Below the pieces are notes generated by a model. That model saw only the letters and a program-made list of their open reading frames with translations, did no database searches and was not told the DNA's origin. Of a DNA stretch of 64,000 bases, positions 3,001-58,322 are shown in pieces. Each line of letters begins with the position of its first letter. Position 1 is the first letter of the stretch. Location of the stretch: the NCBI GenBank assembly GCA_947561585.1, contig CANNZV010000321.1:186001-250000 (forward strand), in the 5' to 3' direction. This DNA is from Caprella mutica (Eukaryota; Arthropoda; Malacostraca; Amphipoda; Caprellidae). A program made the translations under genes and the position numbers.

Positions 3001-3547
3001 TCTTGCAAGAGTAAAGGTACAGTCTCTTGCAAGAGTAAAGGTACAGTCTCTTGCAAGAGTAAAGGTACAGTCTCTTGCAAGAGTAAAGGTACAGTCTCTT
3101 GTAAGAGTAAAGGTACAGTCTCTTGCAAGAGTAAAGGTACAGTCTCTTGCAAGAGTAAAGGTACAGTCTCTTGCAAGAGTAAAGGTACAGTCTCTTGCAA
3201 GAGTGAAGGTACAGTCTCTTGCAAGAGTAAAGGTACAGTCTCTTGTAAGAGTAAAGGTACAGTCTCTTGCAAGAGTAAAGGTACAGTCTCTTGCAAGAGT
3301 AAAGGTACAGTCTCTTGCAAGAGTAAAGGTACAGTCTCTTGCAAGAGTAAAGGTACAGTCTCTTGCAAGAGTGAAGGTACAGTCTCTTGCAAGAGTAAAG
3401 GTACAGTCTCTTGCAAGAGTAAAGGTACAGTCTCTTGTAAGAGTAAAGGTACAGTCTCTTGCAAGAGTAAAGGTACAGTCTCTTGCAAGAGTGAAGGTAC
3501 AGTCTCTTGCAAGAGTAAAGGTACAGTCTCTTGCAAGAGTGAAGGTA
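35..3547. repeat. 24-bp satellite with 1,773-bp higher-order unit
   Basis: About 146 tandem copies of a 24-bp unit, recognisable by GTCTCTTGCAAGAG followed by TAAAGGTACA. Variants carry TGTAAGAG, GTGAAGG, or a 23-bp form with AAAGTACA and TTGCTAG. The order of variants in 35-1807 repeats in 1808-3546 at an offset of 1,773 bp; for example the TTGCTAG variants at about 415 and 535 recur at about 2188 and 2308. Each unit contains the perfect 12-bp palindrome CTCTTGCAAGAG. Because 24 is divisible by three, long open frames appear on both strands; I do not read them as genes. The array ends abruptly at 3547. Confidence 0.95.
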
Positions 3548-4248: not shown

Positions 4249-4883
4249 AGTTTATTAGTAACAGTACCACCATATATTAGTTATAGTAGCACAATGTATA
4301 AGTTACAGTACCACCATGTATTAGTTACAGTACCACCATGTATTAGTAACAGTACCACCATGTATTAGTTATAGTAGCACAATGTATAAGTTACAGTACC
4401 ACCATGTATTAGTTACAGTACCACCATGTATCAGTTACAGTACCACCATGTATTAGTTACAGTACCACCATGTATCAGTTACAGTACCACCATGTATTAG
4501 TAACAGTACCACCATATATTAGTTACAGTACCACAATGTATAAGTTACAGTACCACCATGTATTAGTTACAGTACCACCATGTATTAGTAACAGTACCAC
4601 CATGTATTAGTTATAGTAGCACAATGTATAAGTTACAGTACCACCATGTATTAGTTACAGTACCACCATGTATCAGTTACAGTACCACCATGTATTAGTT
4701 ACAGTACCACCATGTATCAGTTACAGTACCACCATGTATTAGTAACAGTACCACCATATATTAGTTACAGTACCACAATGTATAAGTTACAGTACCACCA
4801 TATATTAGTTACAGTACCACCATGTATTAGTTATAGTACCACAATGTATTAGTTACAGTACCACCATGTATTAGTTACAGTAC
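4249..4883. repeat. 22-bp satellite, left part
   Basis: Tandem units of GTTACAGTACCACCATGTATTA with variants such as TATCAG, TAATAG and CAATGTATAA. A block of several units around 4,310-4,520 is repeated at about 4,550-4,770, so there is a second-level duplication of about 240 bp. The array stops at 4883 within a unit and resumes at 15,885, which places an 11-kb insertion inside it. Confidence 0.92.
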
Positions 4884-15884: not shown

Positions 15885-16255
15885 AGTACCACCATGTATT
15901 AGTTACAGTACCACCATGTATTAGTTACAGTACCACCATGTATCAGTTACAGTACCACCATGTATTAGTTACAGTACCACCATGTATTAGTTATAGTACC
16001 ACAATGTATAAGTTACAGTACCACCATGTATTAGTTACAGTACCACCATGTATCAGTTACAGTACCACCATGTATTAGTTACAGTACCACCATGTATCAG
16101 TTACAGTACCACCATGTATTAGTAACAGTACCACCATATATTAGTTACAGTACCACCATGTATTAGTTATAGTACCACAATGTATTAGTTACAGTACCAC
16201 CATGTATTAGTTACAGTACCACCATGTATTAGTTACAGTACCACCATGTAATAGT
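15885..16255. repeat. 22-bp satellite, right part
   Basis: Continuation of the 4,249-4,883 satellite after the 11-kb insertion, with the same unit and the same variants. It ends at about 16,250 in AGTATTAGTTATCACC. Confidence 0.92.
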
Positions 16256-16431
16256 ATTAGTTATCACCTGCATATAGTTTATTTTCTTAATTTCACATCA
16301 ACCTGTAGTTTACTGCTAATCACTTCAATGCAATGCATTCATTTTGCTGCTCTTCCTATTTTAAAATGTCTCCAGAACCTCCAAATTGATACAAAAATTA
16401 AGAAAATAAGTCTATGGAAATTACAACCAGT

Positions 16432-16965
16432 ATTAGACTTACTCTTACTAGACTTACTCTTATTAAACTCACTCTTATTAGACTTACTCTTATTAGACTT
16501 ACTCTTATTAAACTCACTCTTATTAGACTTACTCTTATTAGACTTACTCTTACTAGACTTACTCTTATTAGACTTACTCTTATTAAACTCACTCTTATTA
16601 GACTTACTCTTATTAGACTTACTCTTATTAAACTCACTCTTATTAGACTTACTCTTATTAGACTTACTCTTATTAGACTTACTCTTATTAGACTTACTCT
16701 TATTAGACTTACTCTTATTAGACTTACTCTTACTAGACTTACTCTTACTAGACTTACTCTTACTAGACTTACTCTTACTAGACTTACTCTTATTAGACTT
16801 ACTCTTACTAGACTTACTCTTACTAGACTTACTCTTACTAGACTTACTCTTACTAGACTTACTCTTACTAGACTTACTCTTACTAGACTTACTCTTACTA
16901 GACTTACTCTTACTAGACTTACTCTTACTAGACTTACTCTTACTAGACTTACTCTTACTTTTCTG
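16432..16965. repeat. 15-bp satellite
   Basis: About 35 copies of AGACTTACTCTTATT or AGACTTACTCTTACT. The TTATT form dominates the left half and TTACT the right half, with scattered AAACTCACTC units on the left. The graded change suggests local expansion of subfamilies. The period gives open frames on both strands (Ser-Lys-rich or Leu-rich), which I treat as artefacts. Confidence 0.95.
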
Positions 16966-18667: not shown

Positions 18668-19350
18668 GAGTACTTCACACCAGTAGTACATGGTAAGTAC
18701 TTCACACCAGTAGTGCATGGTAAGTACTTCACACCAGTAGTGCATGGTAAGTACTTCACACCAGTAGTGCATGGTAAGTACTTCACACCAGTAGTACATG
18801 GTAAGTACTTCACACCAGTAGTACATGGTAAGTACTTCACACCAGTAGTGCATGGTAAGTACTTCACACCAGTAGTGCATGGTAAGTACTTCACACCAGT
18901 AGTACATGGTAAGTACTTCACACCAGTAGTACATGGTAAGTACTTCACACCAGTAGTACATGGTAAGTACATCACACCAGTAGTACATGGTAAGTACTTC
19001 ACACCAGTAGTACATGGTAAGTACTTCACACCAGTAATACATGGTAAGTACTTCACACCAGTAGTACATGGTAAGTACTTCACACCAGTAGTACATGGTA
19101 AGTACTTCACACCAGTAGTACATGGTAAGTACTTCACACCAGTAGTACATGGTAAGTACTTCACACCAGTAGTGCATGGTAAGTACTTCACACCAGTAGT
19201 GCATGGTAAGTACTTCACACCAGTAGTACATGGTAAGTACTTCACACCAGTAGTACATGGTAAGTACTTCACACCAGTAGTACATGGTAAGTACTTCACA
19301 CCAGTAGTACATGGTAAGTACTTCACACCAGTAGTACATGGTAAGTACAT
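18668..19350. repeat. 27-bp satellite
   Basis: About 25 copies of the unit GTACTTCACACCAGTAGTRC followed by ATGGTAA. Variation is mostly A/G in AGTACATGG versus AGTGCATGG, and variants occur in runs. The 27-bp period keeps frames open on both strands; these are not read as genes. Confidence 0.95.
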
Positions 19351-19379
19351 CACCCCCATGTTCTCGTACTTACCGTAGA

Positions 19380-26439: not shown

Positions 26440-26865
26440 TCAGGACTTTTCTAAAGGAGGTATATTGCAAAACTCATCTTTTGTAGACAATAATAAGGAA
26501 TAATTTAACTCACAACCATATGACATGAAATAATTTGATCTTGAGATGACAGAAATATTATCATTTGACTTTAAATTCAGTGCTTTAGAAGAGACTGCTA
26601 ATGTATTTATAAGAGTTCCACCTCCAGTCTGCTGCTGGAAAACTTCAATAGTGTCCCCATCCTCCATGTCTAAACCTTTGGGGGTGTCATTCTCAGATAT
26701 GGGCTGCCCATCAAATCTGAACCTGACTGTTGCCTGTGCCATTTTGCTGCGGGCACAATAGGCACTCATGAGCTTCTTCAGGGACGTGTGCTGCTTGATT
26801 TTAAAGTGAACAACTTGTCCATCCTGGCCCAAGACTTTGAGGTTGATATGGTCCACAGAATCTTT
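26440..26865 (-). CDS. SUMO: SUMO (small ubiquitin-like modifier), C-terminal exon
   Basis: This exon encodes 141 residues. It enters after a TTTTACAG acceptor and starts with [19 protein letters not shown], followed by [14 protein letters not shown] and [14 protein letters not shown], and ends its core with [13 protein letters not shown]. That is the SUMO beta-grasp fold through the di-glycine used for conjugation to lysines of target proteins. The amino-terminal exon with the start codon was not found. Two things are odd. Helix-region residues ([13 protein letters not shown]) differ from the usual AYC-R-GLS pattern. In addition, 59 residues follow the GG before the stop, where most SUMOs have 2 to 11. 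The tail could be intron read-through after an unrecognised donor (GAG|GTGGAA), a real extension, or a sign of a diverged paralogue. Family assignment is firm; functional status is less so. Confidence 0.88.
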
Positions 26866-26910
26866 CTGTAAAAGATATTCAAGTGTAAGTTTACACTCCT
26901 TTACTACCAA

Positions 26911-34946: not shown

Positions 34947-35094
34947 GTAAAAGTAGGATTTATAATGAACTTTATGCAATATGATAACTCAAGATAATCT
35001 TTAGGTTATCATCAATAAATATAGCTTCATATTTCATTGATTATTTCTTTTTATCTTTTATAATCATTTCTTTTATAATTCTTAGGGGATCAAC

Positions 35095-35905
35095 TATTTT
35101 TCACTAATTCCTGGAATATTCCCTTGATATTGTTAGGGAATCAACTAAATTTCAGTAATTCCTGGAATATTCTTTAGATATCCTTAGGGGATCAACCAAA
35201 TTTCAGTATTTCTTAGAATATTCACTCAATATCGGAAAGAGATCAACTAGTTTTCATTAATTCCTGGAATATTCCCTTGATATCATTAGGGGATCAACTA
35301 ATTTTCATTTATTCCTGGAATATTTCCTCGATATCGTTAGTGGGTGAAGAAATTTTCACTAATCCTTGGAATATTCCCTAGATATTGTTTGGGATCACCT
35401 AATAATCACTAATTCCTGGAATATTCCCTCGATATCGTTAGGGGTTCAACTAATTTCACTAATTCCTGGAATATTCCTTCGATATCGTTAGGGGATAAAC
35501 TAATTTTCAGTAATTCCTTGAATATTCCCTCGATATAGATAGGGTCATAGGGATCAACTAATTTTCACTAATTCCTGGAATATTCCCTCGATATTGATAG
35601 GGACCAACGAATTTTCACTAAATCCTTGAATATTCCCTCGATATCGTAAGGGATCAACTAATTTTCACTAATTCCTTGAATATTCACTCGATATCGTTAG
35701 GGGATCAACTAATTTTCTCCAATTCCTATAATATTCCTTCGATTTCGTTAGGGAATCAACTAATTTTCCCTAATTCCTAGAATATTCTTTCGATATCTTT
35801 AGGAGATCAACTAATTTTCACTAATCCCTTGAATATTCCCTCGATATCAATAGGTGATCAACTCATTTTCACTAATCCCTGGAATATTTCCTCGATATCA
35901 TTTTA
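35095..35905. repeat. 51-bp tandem array
   Basis: GAATATTCC recurs about every 51 bp (near 35,114, 35,164, 35,264, 35,417, 35,576, 35,626, 35,831 and others). Units diverge by 10-25% with occasional indels. The array core of GAATATTCCCTCGATATCG is the complement of the words repeated in the element's ends. Confidence 0.88.
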
Positions 35906-40473: not shown

Positions 40474-40522
40474 ATGCATCTAGCGACATTCCTATTATTG
40501 ACGTGTCATGCACTTTATTATG
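40474..40522 (+). CDS. Receptor exon 1 (signal peptide)
   Basis: Encodes MHLATFLLLTCHALYY and one base of the next codon, before the strong donor GTGAGTAT. This is a hydrophobic secretory signal. The exon is too short for ordinary frame searches; its phase (1) fits exon 2 exactly, giving Glu at the junction. Confidence 0.75.
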
Positions 40523-43500
40523 GTGAGTATATATATTAAAAGATGAACTATGTATATATTGCCGACGTACAAAGAATGAAAATATTTATCAAATTAGTTG
40601 AAATCTTCTTGTGTCGAAAAGTTTTAATTTAATTACCATCGAGAATCTAGCATTACTATTGTAATTATTTATATTATTTTCAGATCTTGCTTAATTTTTA
40701 GCTCATAATACCCTACTTGATTGATTCTGAAAATGGACATCTTTTAATGATAGTGCTGTTATGCAAGATCTCATGGCGTCCAAGAAAGTTTTAACAGTCA
40801 TTCTATTCTGGAAAATTTGGATATCAAAATAATTTCCTTTTAAAAAAAATAAGTATTCTCCCCACAGTATTCAATATATACCTATATTATTTCGATCGCT
40901 ATTAAATTGAAGATGCTTTATATTTTCATCTCCTTGATCATAACTGATTATATTGTTTTTATATTGGAATTGCTAATAGTATTGTAGCTATTTAGTACAT
41001 TCGGCTGCAATGACAAAGAGAAAAAGTGAAGTCAACCCACAAAGTTTACTACATAATACATATACGATCGGAGATTGGTTAGAATTAAATATTGTGAAAT
41101 TATCTGTTAATTAATAGGTAGCTGTTAAACAATAATGAAATTAAGATGGGGAAAGATATATGTAGATATAATTTTGATCCAAGAAGTGCTAAGAAGACAT
41201 TGTAAATTAATAATAAGACATCTTCTGTGAGCCACAATCTTCAGATCGAATCGTTACAGGTTTTTTGGGAGTGTCTTGGAGAAACAATTAATCATTGAAT
41301 CATTCAAATATATTGTAAGAAAGAGAATGATTAGATTTGAAAAGAAGTTGGATTGGAATGCCTCCAGTTAAAAGAAGTTTAAAGTTGCTTTCTTAAATGA
41401 GTAAAGGATAACAAATCATCACACTGGCATTTCTCAATTTCCTATCATACCATTTTTCTTCCATGTAATTCGAAATATCTTCTAAAAGTACTTTTCTTGA
41501 GTTTTAGACATGTTTAGCATCATTATTGGAAATGTGAGGGAAACTATATACTATTCATTATGATTCCAGGACAAAAAAAAGTGCAATAAACCCCCCCCCC
41601 CCCCTCCCCGGACATATACCCCCAAAGCAAAAAAAACCCGGTCGATATAAATAACCTTAACTTTTTTATTACTATATTTAACATCATTCAATGCGAACCG
41701 ATAATTATTACATTTTCGCCAAAAACTTGACAAATTTTTAGCTATATAAGTATACCTATTTATAGCAAAAAAAGTAAAGTATACATTCTGTAACTATCTA
41801 ATCTGGCCGGGGAGGTCAAGACATTCCCCCCCCCCCCCCCCCCAACCGGACAGCTAACCAAACCTAAGGTGCACTATATCTCTTTATATTTATAACATAT
41901 AGTATTTTTAATAATAAAAAATGATTAAAAAAGAATTGTCACCGTTCATCATTATAGAACCTGCTGAGGAGTTCTATTGTCTAACGAATTTCATTGGTTA
42001 ATATTCCCGTCAAGAAAATCCTTGCCGAAATCCTTCTCAAAATTTCTGTCCGCATATAATCCAACACATTTTTTGAATACTTATGTCAAATAATGTCTAG
42101 TCCAATGAAGATTTCACATTACAATATTAATGATTTGGAAAATTTATTACGCATAAAGATATTTATGTAGCGCGATGTGAATTTGCAATATTAATTATTT
42201 CTTCGATTATCTTAATTCCGTTTCTTCGATTCATCTCCAATATATTTAAGTATTTAGTATTCTGTACAATGATTTCAAGCTACTTAAAGGGATAGTAAAG
42301 TCAAAATCAAACAATATTACCAAATTGGTTTTAAATCGATTCAGAATATTCAATTATGTAATATTTGAATCATTGAATGCTCGTTTATTTTTTAAATGTT
42401 CATATAAAAGTATTATAAAATTACCGACACCTAGCGGAAGAACTTGCACTCATTAGTATTTACGTTAGTATGATTTTTGTTTTAATATTAATTTATGTAT
42501 GAAGTAATCAAACTTTGTTTCCGTCAAAATGATGAAAAGATTATGCGAATTCGAAGACAAGAAGGCATAGTTTTAAAAATATAGCCATATCTCTTCACTT
42601 GAGCTAGAATCTAGAGTTCTAGATAGAAACTTCACTCATTTGGTTTATTTACAAGATGATTGTGAATTTCTTATGGCGCCATCTACCGTTAGCACTTGGT
42701 AAGAAATCTTTATTATATAAAATGATATATTTTCATTATTAGATTTTATTGAACATCACCATTCTACAGGAATACTTTATTCTTACTAAGCAATCGTTTG
42801 GCATTAAAATTGCTAAAATAAAAAATGACTGTACTGCCCCTTTAAGAGTGGATTATTTTATCTAAGAATCTAACACATTATAGAAAATAATAAATACAAT
42901 TTTCTAACAAAATATAAACTCCTGAATTGAATTAAAAGAAAGTCTATCATTATTTTTCTGAACCATGTTTAATAAATGCAATTATAGGTGTAAATTTTAC
43001 GAATGATTATTGACCAAGTCTAAATATCAATTCAAAGTATTAGGAAGCAAGACTCGATCCATTGTAGTACATATGTTAAATTGGAAATATGTAAATCTTA
43101 AGCTATAAAAAAATTCAAATTGATAATCAAAACCAAGAGTGCACAATATTTTTCTTCAGCGACAGTTTAGTGAAGTATTAGACATAATATTATAAACTTC
43201 AAAAGCATATACAAAAATATATACTGACTTGAACTTTATGCAGTTTGGAAATTAATGATCCTAGACCTTAGTTTCAAAATATTATGTAATAATTCATTTT
43301 TTTCCCGAAGCAAAGTATAATCACGATTACTATTCATTGGTCCGACGCCTCATTAGTCCGACACTTTTGCATTTTATTTCTGATTCAACATCAAACACAT
43401 GTACATCGAGGGGCGTGTCACCCCCGAACCCCCTGTCACGTCATTAAAGAATCATGAAGTGTGCAGTTCAACAAATGATATACTCGAATGAATGATTGCA

Positions 43501-46500
43501 TCTCACAAATTAATATTTTAAATAAAGTAAAATAAGTGAGGGATTTAAAATTAAAAAAATAGAAAAAAATATATCTTATCAATTGGATTATTTAGTAATT
43601 GAGTATATCTTTTTCATAATATTTTTTGTTTTAATCAAAATAAAAAAGGGAAATAACACAGAAGGGTATTAACTGTCGGACTAATGGGGCGTCGGACTCA
43701 TGAGACGTCCTCATAATCATTATTCAGAGATATTACGAACATCCGCAGATATCGTTTCAAGCGAAGAAATAAGTATCTTGGATACGAGTAATAACCAAGA
43801 TCCAAATAAATATTCTGGATCCTACTTGCATGGATTTGAACTTAACACTGCGTTGCCTCTCTCGGTTTGTCTACGCTTCCAGTTCGAAAGTTTGAACCCA
43901 GTGAACGTGTTTTTTCGGATTCCTGGAACTGGCACGAGACCCGTGCTTCATATTGGTGAGCATTGATAGTAGCAGTATTGAATAATTCAAATACATAGTG
44001 AAATATGAATACTTTACGAAAATAGTTTGTCTTTTTTTTCAGAAATGAGCGTAGATAGATTCAGATATGTTATTGCACATGAATACAAGTATGTACTGTT
44101 GAAAAATTGGTTAATACCTGGCAGTTGGTACTCTGTTTGTTTAACATTTGACATGCAGACAGCATCATTCTATCTTGATGGGGATGTAATAGATGTATAT
44201 AGACTTCAAGTGCAAAATCGTCCCTCGGGAAACCAAATTACAGTTGGATATTACCCAAGTCAAGGAGTTGGTATGTCTTACATTGGAAACCTAACTCAAG
44301 TGAATATTTGGCAGAAGCAACTTTCAGAAGAGACTATCAAGAGTATTCACAGGTGCCATTACAATTTGGAAGGAGACATAGTCAGTTGGTCTAGCCAGTG
44401 GACTGATCAAAACTCAATTCGGCACAAAGATGAGCTTACCAAGTTGTGCACTGGTACTGTCACGTCTAAGTCAATTGAAGTTACGAAGCCAATGACGTTC
44501 ACTGAAGCAACATTGATATGTGAAGGATTTGGTGGAGAGTTAGCTACACCCACTACACATGACGAAGTTAAAACTGTAATAAGCATCGTAAGAGAAAAGG
44601 AACCAAACTGTTCTATTTTTTGGAGTGGGTACTGGGATGAGAACATTGAAGGAAGATGGACGTATCATTTGGGTGGCAAATTGGCCCCAAAGATTCCATG
44701 GGCTCAAAATGAACCCAATGGAATAAATTTTGAAAACTGTGGAGGTATTGACGAAGAAGGAGTTGTAGATGCAGATTGTAATACCAAAAGGTGAAGTAAC
44801 TTGTTCTTTAAAATGAGTTGTTTTGTCATATATCATAAATTCTATTAGAAAATTAATAAAAAGTTCATTTTCAGGTGTCCCATTTGTATTATTGAACATG
44901 GAAAGCCGTGGACACTAAGAGGCTCTTGTGAAACTGTGTCGCATGATATGAAATTTCTCGCGCAGTTCTTACCAACCAAATTTAGAGGATTTGGAGATTA
45001 TTCAATAGAAAAAAGAAACGGTATATGGAAGTGGATGGATGTTCACACTGAAGCAGAGATTGCAGAACTCAATGTTCAACAGTTCTATTATCCAATGGGT
45101 TTGAAATGGTGGAAGATAAAAGAACCAATTTGTGGCCAGTTGTCCGGTATGCGACAGCTTCTCCTGACATCATGCAACGGGAACCAATTTACTTGCAGTG
45201 ATGGCACCTGTGTGGACCATGAAGCGAGGTGTGACCTAGATTTCGACTGTAGAGACCATAGCGACGAGGACAACTGTTTCACTATGATGCTGCCTCATAA
45301 TTATAAGGTTTGATTGCCAGTTTACACCCTTAATTATATTTTAACCCTTTATTGCATGAATTATTTATAGTTTAAATTTAAACATATTTCATATTTACTC
45401 ATATGCGAAAGTGAGGAAAACTTTACATGCCATGATGTAATATTTCATCAAGAGGCTGCAGAGGAAGAGTAACGACTCAATTACCGGATGTTTTCAGTCA
45501 ATATCAAGTTGGCAATGATAGGATAAGCAACATTTTCGACATTCAGATCGGCAGGGGCGTATCTATCTCTTTTCAAAAAATTTCCATGTGTCTGAAAAAA
45601 TCTACGGATTAGTCCTCAGACTTGAAAAAATGTCAGTTATATGATACTTTTAATTGTTTTCAACATGCTTCACTGTAACTGTGTTCCATCAGAAGCGTCC
45701 TGGGGAAGCATCATTTTTAAATTGCGAATTGGGAGAACTTAAAATGATTCAAGCTGTATTATGTATACGTCATTTTTTCATAAGAATGTTTTTTTATCAT
45801 CCCATTAATATTAGCATTAATCTTCAACCTTAAAAATGTTTCTGAATTTCAGAAGAAATGGATCGTCCTGTACTCTGTAGCTTGCTAAAATACTTTCTCC
45901 TTCAACAGTACGTCGAAAATTCATGCTTCAATCCAAGCTAAATGGAAGGGCGGCTAAATCTTACCACACATGAAAAAGTTCACAAGTGTTCGTGGTCTTT
46001 TCAATAAGACTGCATCTGTAATCTATGAATGAAAATAAAACCAAAATGAACAGAAGCAGTGATTCAGGAGGCGTAGAGTTTCTTAGAAGAAACCCCCAGT
46101 TGTTCTCTCAGAAAAGCTTCTCAGTAGATTTCACCCACCAAATCTTCGCTGTGGAGGATCGATATACATGATTTTCGTTTCTGTTTTTATCATTACACCT
46201 ATGATTGAAATGTTAATCATTAGCTGATGTCCACAAAGCACAGAGAAGTCAGTTTTGTCAGTGGATTCTGCAGCAACCTCTGCATCCATCAAAAAACCAC
46301 ACCAAAAAACAACGGAGTGTAGACTAATGAAAATCCTCGAAATATCAACGGAATAAATGATAAGTATGATGCTAAGGCAATATCTTTGTTGCCATTGGAT
46401 CTAATTATATGGATCTAATATTTCATGCATTCCTTGACGACGAAGGTGTAATGGTGTTTCATATCTCGGATTGCTCCAGGACATTATTTGGCCCAGAGAG

Positions 46501-49500
46501 CACCATTCTGCAACTCCTTCTTTACTTTGGTGGATGCAAGACGGCGGCGCTCCACCACATTGCATAAATACAGCTCTAGAATTTCTCAATGAAAAGTTTC
46601 GAGGTTGATTCATTAGCAGAAGAACGGAAAATCTCTACTTTTGTAGGCCTCAGGAGATGTGCCTCATATGATATATGACAATAAATGTTTAATAATAATA
46701 CTTTCTCTTCCATGAAAGTGGTGTATCTATGATGATAATTAATACATTAGAAGTGCTTCTAATTCGCAATTTAAAAATGTCGTTTCTGATGGAACACAAT
46801 GCATGTATTTTATAGTCCATAATATGCTGTATTTAAAGTCCAATAGACTGTTAGTCAATAACTTAATCATAACAGTCAATCATTGGCTGCAGCAAAACTC
46901 ATCAAAACAATATTATTCAGATACGTCATTTTTAAATTGCGAATTAGAAGCACTTAAAATAAGTCAAATGCCATTATAGACACATCACTTTTTATTATTA
47001 TTAAACATTTATTGTCTTATATCATATGAGGCACTCCTTCCGAGGTCCTACCAAAGGGGTTGAAAATGACTCCTTCCAGTATGGATACAAAACGACGCAC
47101 GCTTCAGAACATTCTTGCATACTTTCTTGAGTCTTCTTGTTAGCGAGCTTTGAATACATTGTATAAGAGACTCATTGCAATCTGTTTTTTTATTTAAACT
47201 TGAGTTTTTGAAGCAGCCCATATGCAAAAGTCCAAATGGTTGAGATCTGTACTGTGTGCTGAACAGAAATTTTATTTCCGTACTTCTTCTAATCACTCGA
47301 CCTCGAAACTTTTCCTTGAAAATTCTAGAGTTGCATTTGTGCAATGTGGTCTTGCATCCACCAAAGTGAAGAAGTTGCAGACTGAGCCAAATAATGTGCT
47401 GGAGCAATCAGAGTTTTGAAACACCATTAGCCGATGACAAGTTTCCATATTAGTCAAGGAATGCATGAACAATTGAACCAATTCTATTAGAAATTGCAAC
47501 GAAAATAAAACCTTAGCATCCTACCTATTGTTTGTTTCCACATTTTTCGATGATTTTGATTCGTATTTTTTCGATGTGATTTTGATGGAGGCAAAAGAAC
47601 TTCTCATCTGTCCAATCGATTCAATTGGAAATGTTGGATGATTGCTGCAGAATTCACTGAAAAAACTGCTATTTCTGTGCTTTTCGTTAAAGGTCCCCTC
47701 CAAGCAAATATTTTTATTGCCTTATTCAACGAGGCTAATGTTTCTTATCATTTTGCTGCAAACCGCATCGAATTTGGCAGAATATTTTTAATTATATATG
47801 CTTTTAAAGATTTTTATAATTAAAACTCTACAAAACCTATTTTACTTCCGATTTACTAATTTAAGAAATTTTAAGCCTGAAGAAAAAGAATGTACACCAT
47901 TTGTTTTGATTGCCAACTAGGTATTAGGTTTAATAAATCCATTTAATATTCGAGTAAAGGTATAAAATTGAATGAACTTATAATAGAAACGTTTATATAC
48001 TTTTGGAAACAATTAATATCTAAAATAAATGCCGAAAACGCATGGTTCGTTTATAAAATTCAAATTTGTAATCAAAACAAAGAGTGTACAATCTTCTTCT
48101 TGAGCATCTGATTAGTGATTCGCTCAATTGTTGCTCACAAAGTATTAAAAACTTTAAAAACTAATTATAAGATATATACTGAACAGAATTGTATACGGTT
48201 TGCAGAATAATGATCGTAGACCTTAGTTCTATAATATTATGTTATAAACTCATTTTTTTCCCGGAGCCTGGAGAGGACATTTAATGGTTGAACTGAAGTG
48301 AAGTGTAATGATAAAAACGGAAACCAAGTCAATGTATGACGTTCCTCCACCACGTGGTTTTGGAGGGTGAAATGTTTTGAAAAGCTTTTCTGAGAGAGCA
48401 ACGGGGTTTTTTGTCAAAGAAACTCTTCACCTTCTAAATCACTGCTTCTGTTCTTTTTGGTTTTGTTTTTATTAGCTTTTTTTGTGGATGGAACCAGTCT
48501 TTTTCAGGTGACAAGATTTTACTGCCTTTTCACTTATCTTGAAATGTAGCATGAATTCTCGGCGTATTAATGAAGAAGAAAGTGGTTTAAAAAACTGCAG
48601 GACAATCTATTTCTTCTGAAATTCAGAAAAATGTCAAGGTTGAAAATCAACGCTAATATTAATAGGGTGAATACGACTTGAAGCATTTTAAGTACTACAA
48701 ATTCGCAATTTAAAAATGACGCTTCTGATAGAAAACAGTGTTCATGCATGTTCAAAGCAATTAAAATATAATCAAATAATTGACATTTCGTCAATTTTGA
48801 GAATTAATCCGTATATTTCTATTAATCCGTAGATTTATTTTTAAAAATTTTAGAACTCAAGGGGGGGGGGGCATCTTCTCCAATTGCCCCCCCCCCCCCC
48901 GTGTATACACGCCTGCAGATCAGCTAATGACCTTTTATTAAACGTCTAATTATCCTAAGAAATATTTTAACATGATTTAATGAATAGACATTAATTAGTG
49001 AATAATAAGAATTAATTATTTCGCTGAAATCACTGTATTTTCAGATAAAATAGTGCTTTATTAGTTAACATAATCTTACGCGATCCTCTGATAGATGGCG
49101 TCGTTTATGCAATTTCCCTATAGATGATCATGAATCTTCATTGACGGTTTCAAAATGTCTGAATATCTTCGCAAATAATAAATATTTAATCGAATTTGAG
49201 TTATACATTAATGTAGGTACTACACTAACTAATAAATAAACTAATTCTAGTTATAATTATGAATATTACATTCCGATACACAAAAGTTATTAGCACAACG
49301 TTTTTTTTTTAAAAAACAACAAGAAGTACAAAACAAAATACAATTACTCGCGAAAAACTTTTTACCAAGCCATCAACAATCGTTTATCCAAGTCCTCCAC
49401 AGACATCGCGTGGGTAGCACAATTTTTATCTACAAGACAGATCACACAAAACAGAAGAACTCGGTGGCCATTCTTCTATAGTCAGAAGCATGCAGTGGAA

Positions 49501-52500
49501 CATTGTCATCGGTTTATGACCAAAGAAGAATGGCCACCGAGATCCTTTGCTTTGAATGTTTGTGTGGTCTGTCTTGGAGATAAAGATTGCGCTACCCATA
49601 TGACTTGGATAAACGATTGTTGAAGGCTTGCATAGATAAAAATTTACCAAAATATTTTCCATGCCACGATTCATGATTTTCCTCGCAGATTTAGCGCTTT
49701 TATTAAATCAATAGATCACCAAAGTTCCTTCTTAGATTATCGGCGAAATATTCCTATGTTATTCGTACGGGAGAAAAGTAGGTGGTAAAACATCCCTTAC
49801 AGCTGACTTTACTTACGCTTGGAAAATTCTAAGTCGATTCCTAATATCTAAACGCATTCATTAATAAAAAGTTCATCGTAATGTGTATTCAAATAAAAAA
49901 AGTTAGGAGCAATTTGATTAGAAATAACGTCAATTTAGAGACAAATCCGTAAATTAGGTAACCTGTACAACATATTTTTACGCGAGAAATTTGAAAGATT
50001 GGTTACCAAATAACGTAAAGTTCTACAGTTTTGGGAGTATATCTTATTATTGAAGTAATTTTATTTATTTTATAACTTTTCTATCTTAGAATAGGATTCA
50101 GAAACCTAAGTATTAGGTTTAGGTATGTATTATTACAAGATTAAAGATATAATATAATACAAAATAACTACATAGTTAGTTTCAAAACATGATATCAATC
50201 ATATCACTATCATAATTATATTTATTTTAATTGATATAAGATAAAATAATATATAGTAGGCTAACTAGTTTCAGAATTTTAATTACCTAACTAGGTATAT
50301 TTTATGAGTAACAAAGGTAGGTTCACTGTACCTACTTTCCCCATACCTAGTTCGGTTTCAGAATCCTATCCTATGATAGAAAGGGTATAAAGTAAATAAC
50401 TGAGAGAATTTGATGTAATTTGGTAACCAATCTTTCAAATTTCTCGCGTAAAAATACGTTGTACAGGTTACCTAATTTACGGATTTGTCTCCTAATTGAC
50501 GTTATTTCTAATTAAATTGCTCATAACTTTTTTATTTGAATACACATTTCGATGAACTTTTTATTAATGAATGCGTTTAGATATTAGGTATCGATGTTTT
50601 ACCACCTACTTTTTCTCCCGTACGAATAATATAGTAGTTTTTCACCGATAATCTAAGAAGGAACCCAAATTACTTCACTTTGGTGGTCTATTGTCAATGA
50701 GCGACAATTTCAAATAGAGGATATTTTTTCCATTCGTATTTGCAGAAAAATGGTTTTTGTTTTATTTTTAGTAAATTTATATTTCTTTAACTGTATTTAC
50801 TGAACACCTTGTATAATATAAGATTTAATTTATAGAGTAACGTAGCTCCAAGAGAAAGTGGATCACAATTGCCAGTCACTGCTGTAATAGATGTAAGAGG
50901 CTTGAGAGTGAGCACGGAAGATATGGTGCTGAACATTGCCTTCAATATCACTACGTCGTGGAAGGACAACCGCCTGTCGTACCATAACCTCAAACAAGAT
51001 CAACGACTTAATCCGCTATTCACAAACGGTAGCGTGTGGGTGCCTTACGTAGCGTTTGTGAACACTTTGAACAACGATGGATCAGTGCTAGATGATAAGG
51101 CCTCATTATTTGCTGTCAAGAAGAAGCAGACTGGAAATTCTGTTCCATATCTTCCAGAAGAGGGTGAGCGCTGCATTTCTGAGATAAATATTGTGAATAT
51201 CCTATAGTGTGATATGTAATCAACATATTTAATCTAATTTCAGTCAAGATATATGATGGCACAGAGAATCCAATAGTGAGTCACCGGCAATACCAGTCAA
51301 CATTCACTTGTGATTTCGATCTGTCTCTTTACCCATTCGACGAACAGAATTGCTACATTGAGCTCCATTTGAGAATGATGGGTGCTGCCTATTTCACAGA
51401 CACTAGAGCAGATTACTCAGGCTCTACCAAACTACTTGAGTACACTGTAGGTGAAGTGACGGTAGTAGACACTACGGATAAAACTAGATTAAAGGTAGCT
51501 ACAAAATTATAAAACCTATTATTTTTTGTTGCTCAGTGAAATTAAATTTTTGGTATTAAATGAATCCTACTCATTTTATCTATTAGAAATTCATTGTTAA
51601 TTCCTATTTCTTCTGCATATTAATGATTTACTCTTACACAGATCAGCATTCCCTTGAGCAGACGATACGGCTATGCATTCATTAATATCTACGTACCATC
51701 AATCACAATGCTAACCATCGGTTACCTAACTCTCTTCTTCAACATCACCATCTTCGATGCTAGGGTCATGACTGCACTCACCACTCTACTCGTCATGGCA
51801 ACACTCTTCTCTCAGGTATTGTTGACACTCTTGTTAACATTATATTGAGAAGCACTAAACTTTCTAACTTTTAGAACATCTTCAAAATATGTGGAATATT
51901 TTTTCCAAATCTGTATAATTATATAGTTATAATTTAGTGACATAAATTCATTAATAGGCCATAACAGTGGTTCCTTCACTATTTTCTTGTGGTTATAATT
52001 TATTTGAGGTTTTACGTCTGCTTCGATCATATTGTTGACGTATAAAGGAAATTAAACACAAGGAAGGGACTGCGGCTCAATGAAAAAAATTAACTACCAT
52101 CAGTCAGTGAAAATGCTTATTGATGCAGAAGAATTGCTTACCAAGTAATGTGACGAAAAAGGAAACAATCACCGGTGGCTTCATTTACGGATGGAAGAGG
52201 AAAATGAAGTGTACGAGTCTACCTCGTAGATCTCTACAAAATCTAAGGTCTCCCTGCAGATGTGCCTTCGCTAGGGTAAAATACATGGCAGAATCAAAGG
52301 AAATGGTGGATATGAGTCTGGGCCTTGTGAAGGGTCGGGGTATCACCCCAGAGCAGCGAACTGTCAGCTCTTCCTCCAAAAGAGAGAACGAATAGAGTTT
52401 GCGGCTGACCAGGTTGACTGTGTCACCCCACCTAAGCCAGAAATTCAGAGATATTATTTTCGACCCAAGTAAATAAGTAGGTTTCTAAATGTTAACATTT

Positions 52501-53086
52501 TACATGAAACTTTGATCACCACATATTTTATATCCGGCATAATTTGATATGTTTTACATATGTTACTAATATTGATTCATATAGCTTAAAATAATGTAGC
52601 TCTGATTATTACGTTAATATTGTCAGTTAATTCTTGAAATGTAATTTTGTCTTGTTATCTTAGGTTGCAGCCTCTCTACCCAAAACATCTTACTTCAAGT
52701 CGGTGGACATTTGGCTGCTTTTCTGCATCTTCGTAACGTTCCTCATCATCGTGTTCCACATCCTGATAGATAAGAAGGAGAGTCTGAGTACTGTGGTGAT
52801 AGAGGAGACTAGTGACGAGGCAGAGGAGCAACACAGGAGAAGGGTGAGCGTTCAGCCAATTCACTCAGAGAATGGCTTCGTAGGTCCTGTGTTCCACACA
52901 ATGAGTCACTCCAACTCCACACACAAAGATGATAACAAGAAGAAACTTCTAATGAGAATATTCAAATTGAAGACGAGTAGTGACTATGAATACCTTGGCA
53001 GGATAATAATATCTTCAGTCATTGTCATATTCAATATCATTTACTGGCTCGATATTTTTGTAGTAAGAGATGTAAAAATTAATTAA
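40474..53086 (+). CDS. Cys-loop receptor with pentraxin, C-type lectin and LDLa ectodomains
   Basis: Eight exons (40474-40522, 43728-43955, 44043-44790, 44875-45307, 50836-51163, 51244-51494, 51642-51815, 52664-53086) join at GT-AG borders with matching phases into 2,634 nt, 877 residues. Order: signal peptide (1-16); pentraxin/LamG-like domain (about 45-212, paired Cys in LSVCLRF and YSVCLTF); C-type lectin domain (about 226-350, NEPNG motif); LDLa (442-476, six Cys, DCRDHSDED); Cys-loop receptor ligand-binding domain (487-680, 13 residues between C618 and C632); TM1 690-713, TM2 from 721, TM3 753-771, TM4 849-869. It should act as a pentameric ligand-gated channel at the cell surface; the ligand is unknown. 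The pore start DARV keeps the Ala-Arg of anion channels but has Asp where Pro is usual. The model is mine; transcription was not tested. Confidence 0.88.
41580..41840. repeat. Poly-C tracts in receptor intron 1
   Basis: Runs of C at 41,588-41,602 and 41,825-41,840 bracket an AT-rich stretch with CCGG-containing flanks (CCCCGGACATATACCCCC and CCCCAACCGGACAGC). They resemble the homopolymer tracts at 48,861-48,899 and 55,626-55,638. Exact lengths may be assembly-limited. Confidence 0.6.
42288..42841. mobile_element. 554-bp MITE flanked by TTAA
   Basis: Ends AGGGATAGTAAAGTCA and (reverse complement) AGGGGCAGTACAGTCA. TTAA is present at 42,284-42,287 and 42,842-42,845. It is non-coding and sits in intron 1 of the receptor gene. 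The TTAA duplication suggests a piggyBac-mobilised element. Confidence 0.7.
43090..43320. repeat. Dispersed repeat, copy in intron 1
   Basis: Shares AAATTCAAATT..AATCAAAACCAAGAGTG, TCTTCAGC and GACCTTAGTT..ATAATATTATGTAATAA blocks with 48,050-48,260 and 53,950-54,100. It is a worn copy of the element at 47,689-48,283. Confidence 0.6.
43324..43710. mobile_element. Word-ended element with C-rich core, in intron 1
   Basis: Inverted ends share GTCCGACGCCYCATTAGTCC followed by GACA; the right end has one extra GTCC word. The core CACCCCCGAACCCCCTGTCA, then CATGAAGTGTGCAG, lies at 43,415-43,465. Flanks GTATAATCA and TCATAATCA match at 7 of 9 positions, a possible worn 9-bp duplication. Its right end stops 17 bp before receptor exon 2. 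Confidence 0.6.
43728..43955 (+). CDS. Receptor exon 2 (start of pentraxin-like domain)
   Basis: Acceptor ATTATTCAG, donor GTGAGC. It encodes EILRTSADIVSSEE through GTRPVLHI, including LPLSVCLRFQFESLN, the first strand and first conserved cysteine of a pentraxin fold. The upstream ATG in this open frame lies in the end of an inverted-repeat element and is not the start. Confidence 0.82.
44043..44790 (+). CDS. Receptor exon 3 (pentraxin and C-type lectin domains)
   Basis: Acceptor TTTTTTTTCAG, donor GTGAAG. It encodes the second pentraxin half (WYSVCLTFDMQTASFYLDGD, YIGNLTQVNIWQKQLS) and most of a C-type lectin domain (FTEATLICEGFGGELATPTT, WAQNEPNGINFENCGG). The EPN triplet is the mannose-type calcium site. 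The usual WND partner is replaced by DAD, so sugar binding is uncertain. Confidence 0.88.
44875..45307 (+). CDS. Receptor exon 4 (lectin end and LDLa module)
   Basis: Acceptor TTCATTTTCAG, donor GTTTGA (non-consensus after GT, the weakest border in the model). It completes the lectin domain (RCPICIIEHG) and then encodes a linker and a canonical LDL-receptor class A module with six cysteines and the calcium-binding DCRDHSDED. It ends in phase 0, matching exon 5. Confidence 0.85.
45552..48915. mobile_element. 3.4-kb hAT-like element in receptor intron 4
   Basis: Ends CAGGGGCGTATCTA and (reverse complement) CAGGCGTGTATACA. The flanks CAGATCGG (45,544-45,551) and CAGATCAG (48,916-48,923) match at 7 of 8. 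The interior has several inverted or direct copies of a block around ATTTTTAAATTGCGAATT (45,715, 46,765, 46,930, 48,700), and a large inverted pair (about 46,470-46,610 against 47,300-47,420). Open frames of 60-119 codons inside match nothing I know and carry no transposase motif. Confidence 0.7.
47689..48283. mobile_element. MITE nested in the hAT-like element
   Basis: Ends AAAGGTCCCCTCCAAG and (reverse complement) AAATGTCCTCTCCAGG. Partial relatives lie at 43,090-43,320, 53,820-54,125 (right part) and 56,660-56,830 (left part). The AAAGGTYCYCTCCA end also resembles the MITEs at 24,789 and 28,187. Confidence 0.7.
49372..49642. repeat. Palindrome in receptor intron 4
   Basis: CCATCAACAATCGTTTATCC, then CAAGACAGATCACACAAA and GGTGGCCATTCTTCT, pair with their complements at 49,500-49,630. 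Arms are about 110 bp with a spacer of about 50 bp. An 82-codon minus-strand frame over the right arm is part of the palindrome. Confidence 0.82.
49705..50690. mobile_element. Large palindromic fold-back element in intron 4
   Basis: Arms of about 350-400 bp. TTCCTTCTTAGATTATCGG, GTACGGGAGAAAAGTAGGTG, TAACCTGTACAAC and GAAATTTGAAAGATTGGTTA on the left each have their complement on the right. It ends about 145 bp before receptor exon 5. A single-stranded transcript of this intron could fold into a very long hairpin. Confidence 0.85.
50836..51163 (+). CDS. Receptor exon 5 (ligand-binding domain, first half)
   Basis: Acceptor TAATTTATAG, donor GTGAGCG. It encodes QLPVTAVIDVRGLRVSTED, a W in TTSWKDNRL, and GSVWVPYVAFVN, which occupies the loop A region (WVPY instead of WxPD). 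NITT and NGS are possible N-glycosylation sites. It follows a 5.5-kb intron rich in transposons. Confidence 0.87.
51244..51494 (+). CDS. Receptor exon 6 (Cys-loop)
   Basis: Acceptor TAATTTCAG, donor GTAGCT. It contains the signature loop CDFDLSLYPFDEQNC, with the invariant aromatic-Pro-Phe-Asp and 13 residues between the cysteines, followed by IELHLRMMG. Confidence 0.92.
51642..51815 (+). CDS. Receptor exon 7 (TM1 and TM2)
   Basis: Acceptor CTCTTACACAG, donor GTATTG, 58 codons, phase 0 at both ends. The SRRYGYAFINIYVPS block is typical of the start of TM1. TM2 reads DARVMTALTTLLVMATLFSQ, with the conserved leucine at position 9'. Confidence 0.92.
51990..52445 (+). repeat. Dispersed repeat, copy in receptor intron 7
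   Basis: Homologous to 3,590-3,860 (GTCTGCTTC, CAGTCAGTGA, ATGGAAGAGGAAAATGAAG). A 91-codon frame at 52,120-52,395 is less AT-rich than its surroundings and extends past the homologous part, so this copy preserves more of the element. I recognise no protein family in it. Confidence 0.6.
52664..53086 (+). CDS. Receptor exon 8 (TM3, cytoplasmic loop, TM4, stop)
   Basis: Acceptor GTTATCTTAG. It encodes VAASLPKTSYFKSVDIWLLF (end of TM2, TM3), an acidic then basic cytoplasmic loop of about 75 residues, and TM4 (IISSVIVIFNIIYWLDIF). It stops at TAA after VRDVKIN. The FNIIYW ending resembles anion-type Cys-loop subunits. Confidence 0.92.
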   Translation, partial: VAASLPKTSYFKSVDIWLLFCIFVTFLIIVFHILIDKKESLSTVVIEETSDEAEEQHRRRVSVQPIHSENGFVGPVFHTMSHSNSTHKDDNKKKLLMRIFKLKTSSDYEYLGRIIISSVIVIFNIIYWLDIFVVRDVKIN

Positions 53087-57364: not shown

Positions 57365-58153
57365 TCATTTACCATTAACTGGCAAAAGCCTTGGTTTGGG
57401 AATGATTTCTAATTTCTCACAGCTAATCCATTTTTGTATTTGAAGTGATATTTCATTAGCATCACTCCAATGTATTACTTTAGAAGTTATTTCTTTACCT
57501 ATTGCCTTCTTCAATTCAATTTGTTTAACTAAACTGTAGCCCTGCCTTGCAAAGAGCACATCTGTCTGCTGCAGACAAAGGCCTGGACAGAAGTCGTTTT
57601 TCCCATCCCCAATGTACCCAATGAAACTATACTCTGTCCCTTCACTTGATTTAGCATTCACAAAATTAGTGAGTATTTCACCTTTACACATGTTAATCTC
57701 ACTTAAATTGCACCAGTCCTGCTTGTGAAACATTCGAATATTCAGCAAGCCATCCTCATCAAAGTAGGCCTCATTGGTAAATATTCTATCAAATACATGA
57801 GCACATTTGTTGTGTTCCAAAATGGAGTTAATGAAAATGCTATTTGAATCCGATATTATTAGACAATCTACTCTTTTCTTGTCAATTTGAAGAAGGAATT
57901 CTAACATGCACGGGGTGAAACTCAAATCTTTTAAACAAGATAAATAATCCTCTTCCATACAACCTTCACTGTGTAAGATTTTGAAAATTTCTTGCATATA
58001 TATAGTCCATCCATTATTTTTGTACAAGTCTTCTAAGCCAGGAGGCTTACCACCCTTAAATAATTTATATATGGCAGTGTCGCTGTTAGCATCGATGACT
58101 GTGTGGTCGAAGTCGAAGGCAAGCAGAATTTTCTTGGTATATTCCTCAATATT
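57365..58153 (-). CDS. PHOSPHO1/2-type HAD phosphatase, main exon
   Basis: This minus-strand exon (acceptor TTAATTTACAG) encodes 262 residues to the TAG stop. Near its start is KILLAFDFDHTVIDANSD, HAD motif I with nucleophile and acid aspartates and the DxNSD continuation specific to PHOSPHO1/PHOSPHO2. Motif II is CLIISDSNSIFINSIL, a lysine lies in INMCKGEIL (motif III), and GYIGDGKNDFCPG is motif IV. PHOSPHO1 hydrolyses phosphocholine and phosphoethanolamine, PHOSPHO2 pyridoxal phosphate; the sequence does not decide between them. Human PHOSPHO2 is about 241 residues and starts next to motif I, so this exon covers the whole fold. No ATG precedes motif I here, so a short first exon to the right is missing from my model. 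Confidence 0.9.
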   Translation of the reverse strand, partial: NIEEYTKKILLAFDFDHTVIDANSDTAIYKLFKGGKPPGLEDLYKNNGWTIYMQEIFKILHSEGCMEEDYLSCLKDLSFTPCMLEFLLQIDKKRVDCLIISDSNSIFINSILEHNKCAHVFDRIFTNEAYFDEDGLLNIRMFHKQDWCNLSEINMCKGEILTNFVNAKSSEGTEYSFIGYIGDGKNDFCPGLCLQQTDVLFARQGYSLVKQIELKKAIGKEITSKVIHWSDANEISLQIQKWISCEKLEIIPKPRLLPVNGK

Positions 58154-58322
58154 CTGTAAATTAAAACAACTGTATTATTGCTACATCTCAAGAAGTAAAT
58201 TAATCAAAAGTTAGGTAACTGAATAAGAAGCAGAAAGTTATTTGAAAGGATTACACAATAAATTGATAATTTTAAATCAAATTTATGTAAACTTGAAGTA
58301 GGTAGAGATAATGGTTGTGAAG

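What the first reader, a model, noticed from the sequence alone, without database searches (positions are those of the whole stretch)
40474..53086. A Cys-loop channel subunit fused to pentraxin, C-type lectin and LDLa domains
Eight exons with compatible phases give an uninterrupted 877-residue protein in which three extracellular recognition modules precede a complete ligand-gated channel. Textbook Cys-loop subunits (nAChR, GABA, glutamate-, histamine- and pH-gated channels) have only a signal peptide before the ligand-binding domain. Lectin or pentraxin modules would suit a channel gated or localised by glycans, lipids, lipoproteins or matrix. I cannot exclude that such fusions are already known in some arthropod lineages.
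Basis: partly seen in the sequence, partly recalled or inferred. Interest (0 to 1): 0.85.

Follow-up and report, generated by a model that had tools for sequence, protein, structure and literature searches.

The report
Lectin-armed ion channel of crustaceans
A whale-louse-like crustacean gene really does join sugar- and microbe-recognition domains to a nerve-type ion channel; it belongs to a large, old family shared with crabs and spiny lobsters, so the fusion is genuine but probably not the first of its kind reported.

Summary
The doubtful junction 45307|50836 holds: gene models of Panulirus, Scylla and Petrolisthes read across it, and in the same genome 15 of 21 LDLa-bearing paralogous frames carry pentraxin, CTLD, LDLa and LBD (E<=0.01) in one open frame. 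By hand count, 48 places hold LDLa plus LBD in one frame. The organism is an amphipod (COI closest to Cyamus ovalis, 94%). The window gene groups with decapod genes rather than its own paralogs. Paralogs are under purifying selection in every module. Classical transmitter-cage residues are missing and the anion-channel PAR motif reads DAR, while the gating machinery is kept. I infer a channel whose sensing has moved to the recognition arm, possibly cation-permeable; ligand and current are untested. From memory, Polinski et al. 2021 reported chimeric pattern-recognition/neurotransmitter receptors in American lobster (paper not held), so I call this a new member of a known kind.

The parts
40474..40522 (+). 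exon 1, start codon and putative signal peptide (MHLATFLLLTCHALYY)
   Evidence: hydrophobic start read by eye, no signal-peptide program run
43728..43955 (+). exon 2, start of pentraxin/laminin-G-like domain
   Evidence: P0002 shows a similar stretch
44043..44790 (+). exon 3, rest of pentraxin-like domain and most of the CTLD
   Evidence: environmental fragments P0131 and P0132 match at 58% and 64% over 28% of the query
44489..44887 (+). C-type lectin domain, residues 242-346 (interrupted by intron 44791-44874); EPN motif at 316-318, Asp but no Asn at the WND position (VVDADC from 333)
44875..45307 (+). exon 4, end of CTLD, unnamed beta domain, LDLa, linker to the LBD
44894..45163 (+). unnamed conserved beta domain, residues 349-438
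   Evidence: no Pfam match there; G10, G32, G69, W73, C94 invariant in 26 rows; model pLDDT 87.1; no clear fold match
45170..45277 (+). LDL-receptor class A domain, residues 441-476
   Evidence: cysteines and D.SDE kept
   Evidence: donor gtttga, acceptor ttatag; protein relatives read across it
50836..51163 (+). exon 5, N-terminal half of the Cys-loop ligand-binding domain
51244..51494 (+). exon 6, Cys-loop CDFDLSLYPFDEQNC (residues 618-632) and rest of LBD with a short loop C
51642..51815 (+). exon 7, M1 and start of M2; positions -2' to 0' read D-A-R (codons 51756-51764)
52664..53086 (+). exon 8, rest of M2, M3, intracellular loop, M4 and stop

Best explanation
This is one intact gene for a chimeric Cys-loop (pentameric) ion-channel subunit of an amphipod crustacean. 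It belongs to a family, found here in one amphipod and three decapods, whose extracellular arm is pentraxin-like domain, CTLD, a small unnamed beta domain and LDLa, set directly before the channel's ligand-binding domain. Shown: the architecture, its conservation between amphipod and decapods, its expansion in the amphipod, and purifying selection on paralogs. Inferred: five subunits assemble as in other Cys-loop channels; the arm stands above the channel as a recognition crown, probably calcium-dependent at least in its LDLa, and binds a multivalent surface or soluble pattern (glycan, microbial or food matter); that binding, rather than a small neurotransmitter in the classical pocket, opens or modulates the pore through the conserved Cys-loop and M2-M3 linkage; and the pore is not a standard chloride pore and may pass cations. 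Likely role: contact chemosensation or immune sensing.
For: One open frame with consistent splice phases. All domains detected. Same module order in Panulirus and Scylla. 15 of 21 LDLa-selected paralogous frames carry Pentaxin, Lectin_C, LDLa and LBD at E<=0.01 (4 of 21 with all four over Pfam's cut-offs), and 20 of 21 carry LDLa plus LBD. 48 places with LDLa and LBD in one frame (hand count over). Window gene grouped with 10 decapod/environmental rows at 100/98. Pooled dN/dS 0.15-0.25 and 0.08-0.37 by module in two paralog groups. Loop D aromatic in 1 of 27 and Arg in 1 of 27 sequences, against Trp in 5 of 5 nicotinic-type receptors of the same genome whose loop D was found. DAR in place of PAR; insect GRD and LCCH3, which lack PAR, form cation channels (PMC2064938, passages). 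Cys-loop, pre-M1 and M2-M3 stretch kept.
Against: No transcript, protein or current was examined. No ligand is known. The CTLD calcium/sugar site is only partly kept in the window (EPN and Asp, no Asn), and EPN is absent from 12 of the 21 paralog frames as the pattern counted it. -1' and 0' still read A-R as in anion channels, so cation permeation is a guess; other paralogs read N-D-R, S-N-K or E-V-R. The loop A count (0 of 18 aromatic at the GABA-type position) has no positive control: the nicotinic control receptors are not aromatic there either, and 5 of the 18 family members (not the window) have Phe two places on, where nicotinic receptors have Tyr. The full-length model (head P0001) is poor in the LBD, so pocket loss rests on sequence alignment alone.
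Confidence: 0.5

Rival explanations
1. The arm does not gate the channel; it anchors or clusters it on matrix, cuticle or synaptic glycans, and this subunit is an accessory one that assembles with partners carrying a normal transmitter site.
For: Loss of cage residues is what one expects of a non-binding accessory subunit. CTLD and LDLa modules are common adhesion modules (general knowledge). The gating apparatus is kept.
Against: At least 48 copies by hand count, in old lines, seem more than an anchoring subunit would need; no partner was sought or identified.
Confidence: 0.3
2. A contact chemoreceptor that still binds small or greasy molecules in a remodelled LBD pocket, like the octopus chemotactile receptors (recalled), with the arm only concentrating ligand.
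For: Family expansion with several copies on C703 and C880; divergent pocket residues.
Against: Arm modules are under purifying selection (dN/dS 0.08-0.37) not far from that on the LBD (0.19 and 0.24), so the arm is not idle. Loop C is shortened.
Confidence: 0.15
3. Two neighbouring genes joined by the reader: a secreted pentraxin-lectin-LDLa protein and a Cys-loop channel.
For: 5.5 kb intron with a weak-looking donor GTTTGA.
Against: Decapod models read across the same point (YK-STVAP, YK-STTAP, YK-TSVAP against YK-SNVAP) and paralogs have both sides in one open frame. The open frame of exon 5 begins at the exon start, after a stop, without a start codon there.
Confidence: 0.02

Closest known systems
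Chimeric pattern-recognition/neurotransmitter receptors of Homarus americanus (Polinski et al. 2021, Sci Adv 7:eabe8290; abstract recalled, paper not held; only its citation was seen)
   Same: As recalled: a recognition module joined to a neurotransmitter-type receptor in a malacostracan crustacean.
   Different: The domain list of the lobster genes could not be checked; the window is from an amphipod.
Uncharacterized proteins of Panulirus ornatus (P0001), Scylla paramamosain (P0002) and Petrolisthes manimaculis (P0130)
   Same: P0001 and P0002: same order of modules by alignment, 38-40% identity over 84-89% of the window protein. P0130: CTLD end, beta domain, LDLa, start of LBD.
   Different: Selectivity stretch D-T-R (P0001) and E-V-P (P0002) against D-A-R. 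Pfam does not reach its Lectin_C cut-off in P0001 and lists no Lectin_C in P0002 at E 0.01; P0002 lacks the last LDLa cysteine; P0130 is a partial model.
Glycine and GABA-A receptor subunits
   Same: Cys-loop channel; best solved-structure matches by sequence (E about 1e-18 to 1e-19).
   Different: No recognition arm; keep cage residues and the PAR motif (GABA-A beta-1 shows A-A-R) that the window lacks.
DeCLIC, bacterial pentameric channel with an extra N-terminal domain (PMC9897478 and PMC12664993, starts of abstracts in the search listing)
   Same: A pentameric channel with an added extracellular domain that modulates it; calcium involved.
   Different: Bacterial; a different added domain (recalled).
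Octopus chemotactile receptors (recalled)
   Same: Expanded Cys-loop family that lost classical transmitter-site residues.
   Different: No lectin, pentraxin or LDLa modules, as far as recalled.

Membership tests
Cys-loop (pentameric) ligand-gated ion channel | Neur_chan_LBD with 13-residue Cys-loop | tested here: met
   Pfam E 4.5e-15; CDFDLSLYPFDEQNC at 618-632
Cys-loop (pentameric) ligand-gated ion channel | four transmembrane segments, M2 pore helix | tested here: met
   Neur_chan_memb 29.2 bits, cut-off 28.1; hydropathy peaks; helices at 640-665, 670-694, 699-735, 813-842 in the model of P0001
Cys-loop (pentameric) ligand-gated ion channel | pentameric assembly and ligand-gated current | not testable with these tools
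   needs expression or structure
Anion-selective (GABA/glycine/GluCl type) branch | PAR motif before M2 | tested here: not met
   DAR in the window; DTR in P0001, EVP in P0002. Note that GABA-A beta-1, an anion channel, itself reads AAR in the alignment, so lack of the Pro alone does not exclude anion selectivity
Classical neurotransmitter receptor | aromatic cage / carboxylate-binding residues in loops A, B, C, D (roles recalled) | tested here: not met
   alignment to GABA-A beta-1; loop D count 1 of 27 against 5 of 5; the loop A count lacks a positive control
C-type lectin domain | Lectin_C profile | tested here: met
   38.9 bits, cut-off 22.6
C-type lectin domain | full calcium/sugar site (EPN plus WND; motifs recalled) | tested here: not met
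   EPN present, WND reads VVD
Pentraxin | Pentaxin profile over its cut-off | tested here: inconclusive
   window 20.2 bits, cut-off 25, but Laminin_G_3 over its cut-off; paralogs L021, L022, L046 and others over the Pentaxin cut-off
LDLa domain | six cysteines and acidic calcium motif | tested here: met
   32.1 bits, cut-off 24.1; D, S, D, E invariant in A1
Lobster chimeric receptors (Polinski 2021) | same domain list | not tested
   paper not held

The most novel reading that the evidence does not exclude
Malacostracan crustaceans carry an old, expanded family of pattern-recognition-gated ion channels: Cys-loop channels that gave up the transmitter pocket and the chloride filter and are opened by binding of multivalent glycans or microbes to a pentraxin-CTLD-(new beta domain)-LDLa crown, turning recognition directly into an electrical signal.
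Probability: 0.3. Interest if true: 0.88.

Novelty: new member of a known kind. Interest (0 to 1): 0.55.

Why it matters
If the arm gates the pore, recognition of a surface pattern would be converted straight into current without a G protein or kinase, linking taste-like or immune recognition to excitability. The family offers many natural variants for testing this, and the conserved beta domain and lost cage residues say where to look. It would also mean that crustacean ligand-gated channel counts may mix true neurotransmitter receptors with this family: the Jonah crab paper counts 374 ligand-gated channels (PMC11708212, passage), and the European lobster paper lists separate expansions of ligand-gated channels, pentaxins and C-type lectins (PMC13286009, section 10), which may in part be this one family (my inference).

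Tried and rejected

Limits of the counts. The 21 frames were picked from fetched loci by an LDLa pattern, so LDLa is there by choice, and near-identical copies (such as L025 and L028) count separately. Of the 15 with all four domains at E<=0.01 only 4 (L022, L025, L026, L028) have all four over Pfam's curated cut-offs. The 48 places are a hand count of rows that reach from the LDLa start to at least 40 residues past its end with no stop; rows with a stop inside (C4374, C883) and rows that end early (C84, C3184) were left out. In one search, 2 of 29 sequences gave no loop D and 11 gave no loop A by the pattern used. In the control 3 of 8 loci had no loop D in reach, all eight are nicotinic-type, and no GABA-type control was run. 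dN/dS: L062 was dropped as a duplicate of L026.

Full report
What is there. The window lies on contig C321 of a 903-Mb assembly. The one COX1-bearing contig that reads only with mitochondrial TGA codons (C5068) has a COI closest to Cyamus ovalis, a whale louse (94%), with named amphipods such as Grandidierella next, so the source is an amphipod, cyamid-like. Eight exons with GT-AG introns and compatible phases give one 877-residue frame. Pfam finds a pentraxin/laminin-G-like domain, a C-type lectin domain, an LDLa, a Cys-loop ligand-binding domain and the channel membrane region. Between CTLD and LDLa lies a further ~90-residue domain with no Pfam match. It is conserved from the window to decapods and to distant paralogs (three glycines, one tryptophan and one cysteine invariant in 26 rows) and is modelled with good confidence as an all-beta domain (pLDDT 87) without a clear known fold.

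Is the fusion real? Two lines settle it. First, gene models of Panulirus ornatus and Scylla paramamosain align with the whole protein at 38-40% identity, and these two plus Petrolisthes read YK-STVAP, YK-STTAP and YK-TSVAP across the point where the window reads YK|SNVAP. Pfam sees the CTLD of P0001 only below its cut-off and does not list it for P0002; the alignment carries it. Environmental fragments P0123-P0125 end or leave alignment just after DYK, as expected of the same intron position. Second, in the same genome many paralogs have LDLa and LBD in one open frame. Of 21 distinct LDLa-bearing frames from fetched loci, 15 hold Pentaxin, Lectin_C, LDLa and LBD at E<=0.01 in one frame (4 of 21 with all four over Pfam's cut-offs), and 20 hold LDLa and LBD; the remaining one (L039) has an LBD-type frame further along the same contig. 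A hand count over searches gives 48 places with LDLa into LBD in one frame without stops, the window gene not included. Four more distant frames that I read (L063-L066) still show pentraxin-like and CTLD-like stretches by eye.

Age and selection. In a tree of 36 proteins the window gene groups with ten decapod or environmental rows (100/98), apart from the nearest same-genome paralogs. If the root lies outside this group, as drawn, the duplications that separated these lines predate the split of amphipods and decapods; the window row is a long branch, so its exact place inside the group is unsure. Within two groups of paralogs (7 and 6 sequences) pooled dN/dS is 0.15-0.25 and 0.08-0.37 by module: every module is kept by selection, LDLa most strongly. 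This was not computed for the window gene itself.

How it may work. The channel half is most like glycine and GABA-A receptors among solved structures. The Cys-loop, the pre-M1 stretch and the M2-M3 region are kept. Residues that hold the transmitter are not: in the alignment to GABA-A beta-1 the loop D tyrosine and glutamine become N and T, the loop A tyrosine becomes A, loop B E-S-Y becomes H-L-R, and loop C is shortened with its aromatics lost (residue roles recalled). Over the family the loop D aromatic is present in 1 of 27 sequences and the arginine in 1 of 27; in nicotinic-type receptors of the same genome the loop D tryptophan is present in 5 of 5 loci where loop D was found, and loop B G-S-W in 8 of 8. 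The GABA-type loop A aromatic is absent in 18 of 18, but the nicotinic controls lack it too, so that count stands without a positive control, and 5 of the 18 have Phe at the nicotinic-type position. Before M2 the anion motif P-A-R reads D-A-R here, D-T-R in Panulirus and E-V-P in Scylla, E-V-R in C1806 and, read across an intron, in C25; C84 reads N-D-R and C965 S-N-K. PAR is described as characteristic of anion channels, and insect GRD and LCCH3, which lack it, form cation channels (PMC2064938, passages). From memory, C. elegans EXP-1, a GABA-gated cation channel, has E-T-R there. Against this, GABA-A beta-1 itself shows A-A-R. I therefore infer that sensing has moved to the arm and that the pore may pass cations; both are untested. 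The CTLD keeps EPN and one acidic residue but not the asparagine of the classical sugar site, and EPN is missing from many paralogs, so ligands probably differ between copies. LDLa keeps its calcium motif.

Rivals. An anchoring or accessory role is the strongest rival: a subunit without a transmitter site may simply ride in heteromers. A remodelled chemoreceptor pocket is possible. Two joined genes are excluded for practical purposes.

Known or new. I recall that the American lobster genome paper (Polinski et al. 2021) announced chimeric receptors coupling pattern recognition and neurotransmitter binding; the paper is not held, so I could not check its domain list. The European lobster paper lists expansions of ligand-gated channels, pentaxins and C-type lectins separately (PMC13286009, section 10). 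I therefore file the gene as a new member of a known kind.

Noticed in passing
window 35-3547: A 24-bp minisatellite of about 147 copies, open in several frames on both strands; further arrays include 4253-4883, 15885-16255, 16431-16957, 18669-19353 and 35082-35899.
   Followed up: no
window 26440-26910 (-): Ubiquitin-like (Rad60-SLD, SUMO-type) open frame of 156 aa, E 2.5e-22, running on past its QTGG.
   Followed up: partly
window 57365-58174 (-): Putative phosphatase in one open frame (Put_Phosphatase, E 7.7e-65), 269 aa.
   Followed up: partly
window 46400-47460 and 49290-49710: Intron 4 holds repeated, partly inverted stretches with broken frames that look by eye like decayed transposon pieces.
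   Followed up: no
G000 contigs C703, C880, C660, C370, C965, C1349: Several contigs hold two or more copies of the chimeric channel; C703 gives seven matches at 88-100% identity to the query copy.
   Followed up: partly
G000:C505: A cluster of at least five nicotinic-type receptor exons with WPHD where other receptors of this genome have FPFD in the Cys-loop.
   Followed up: no
G000 contigs C1, C2, C8, C4109 and others: COX1-like frames open in the standard code suggest bacterial contigs in the assembly; the mitochondrial contig C5068 carries COI twice, about 15.4 kb apart.
   Followed up: no
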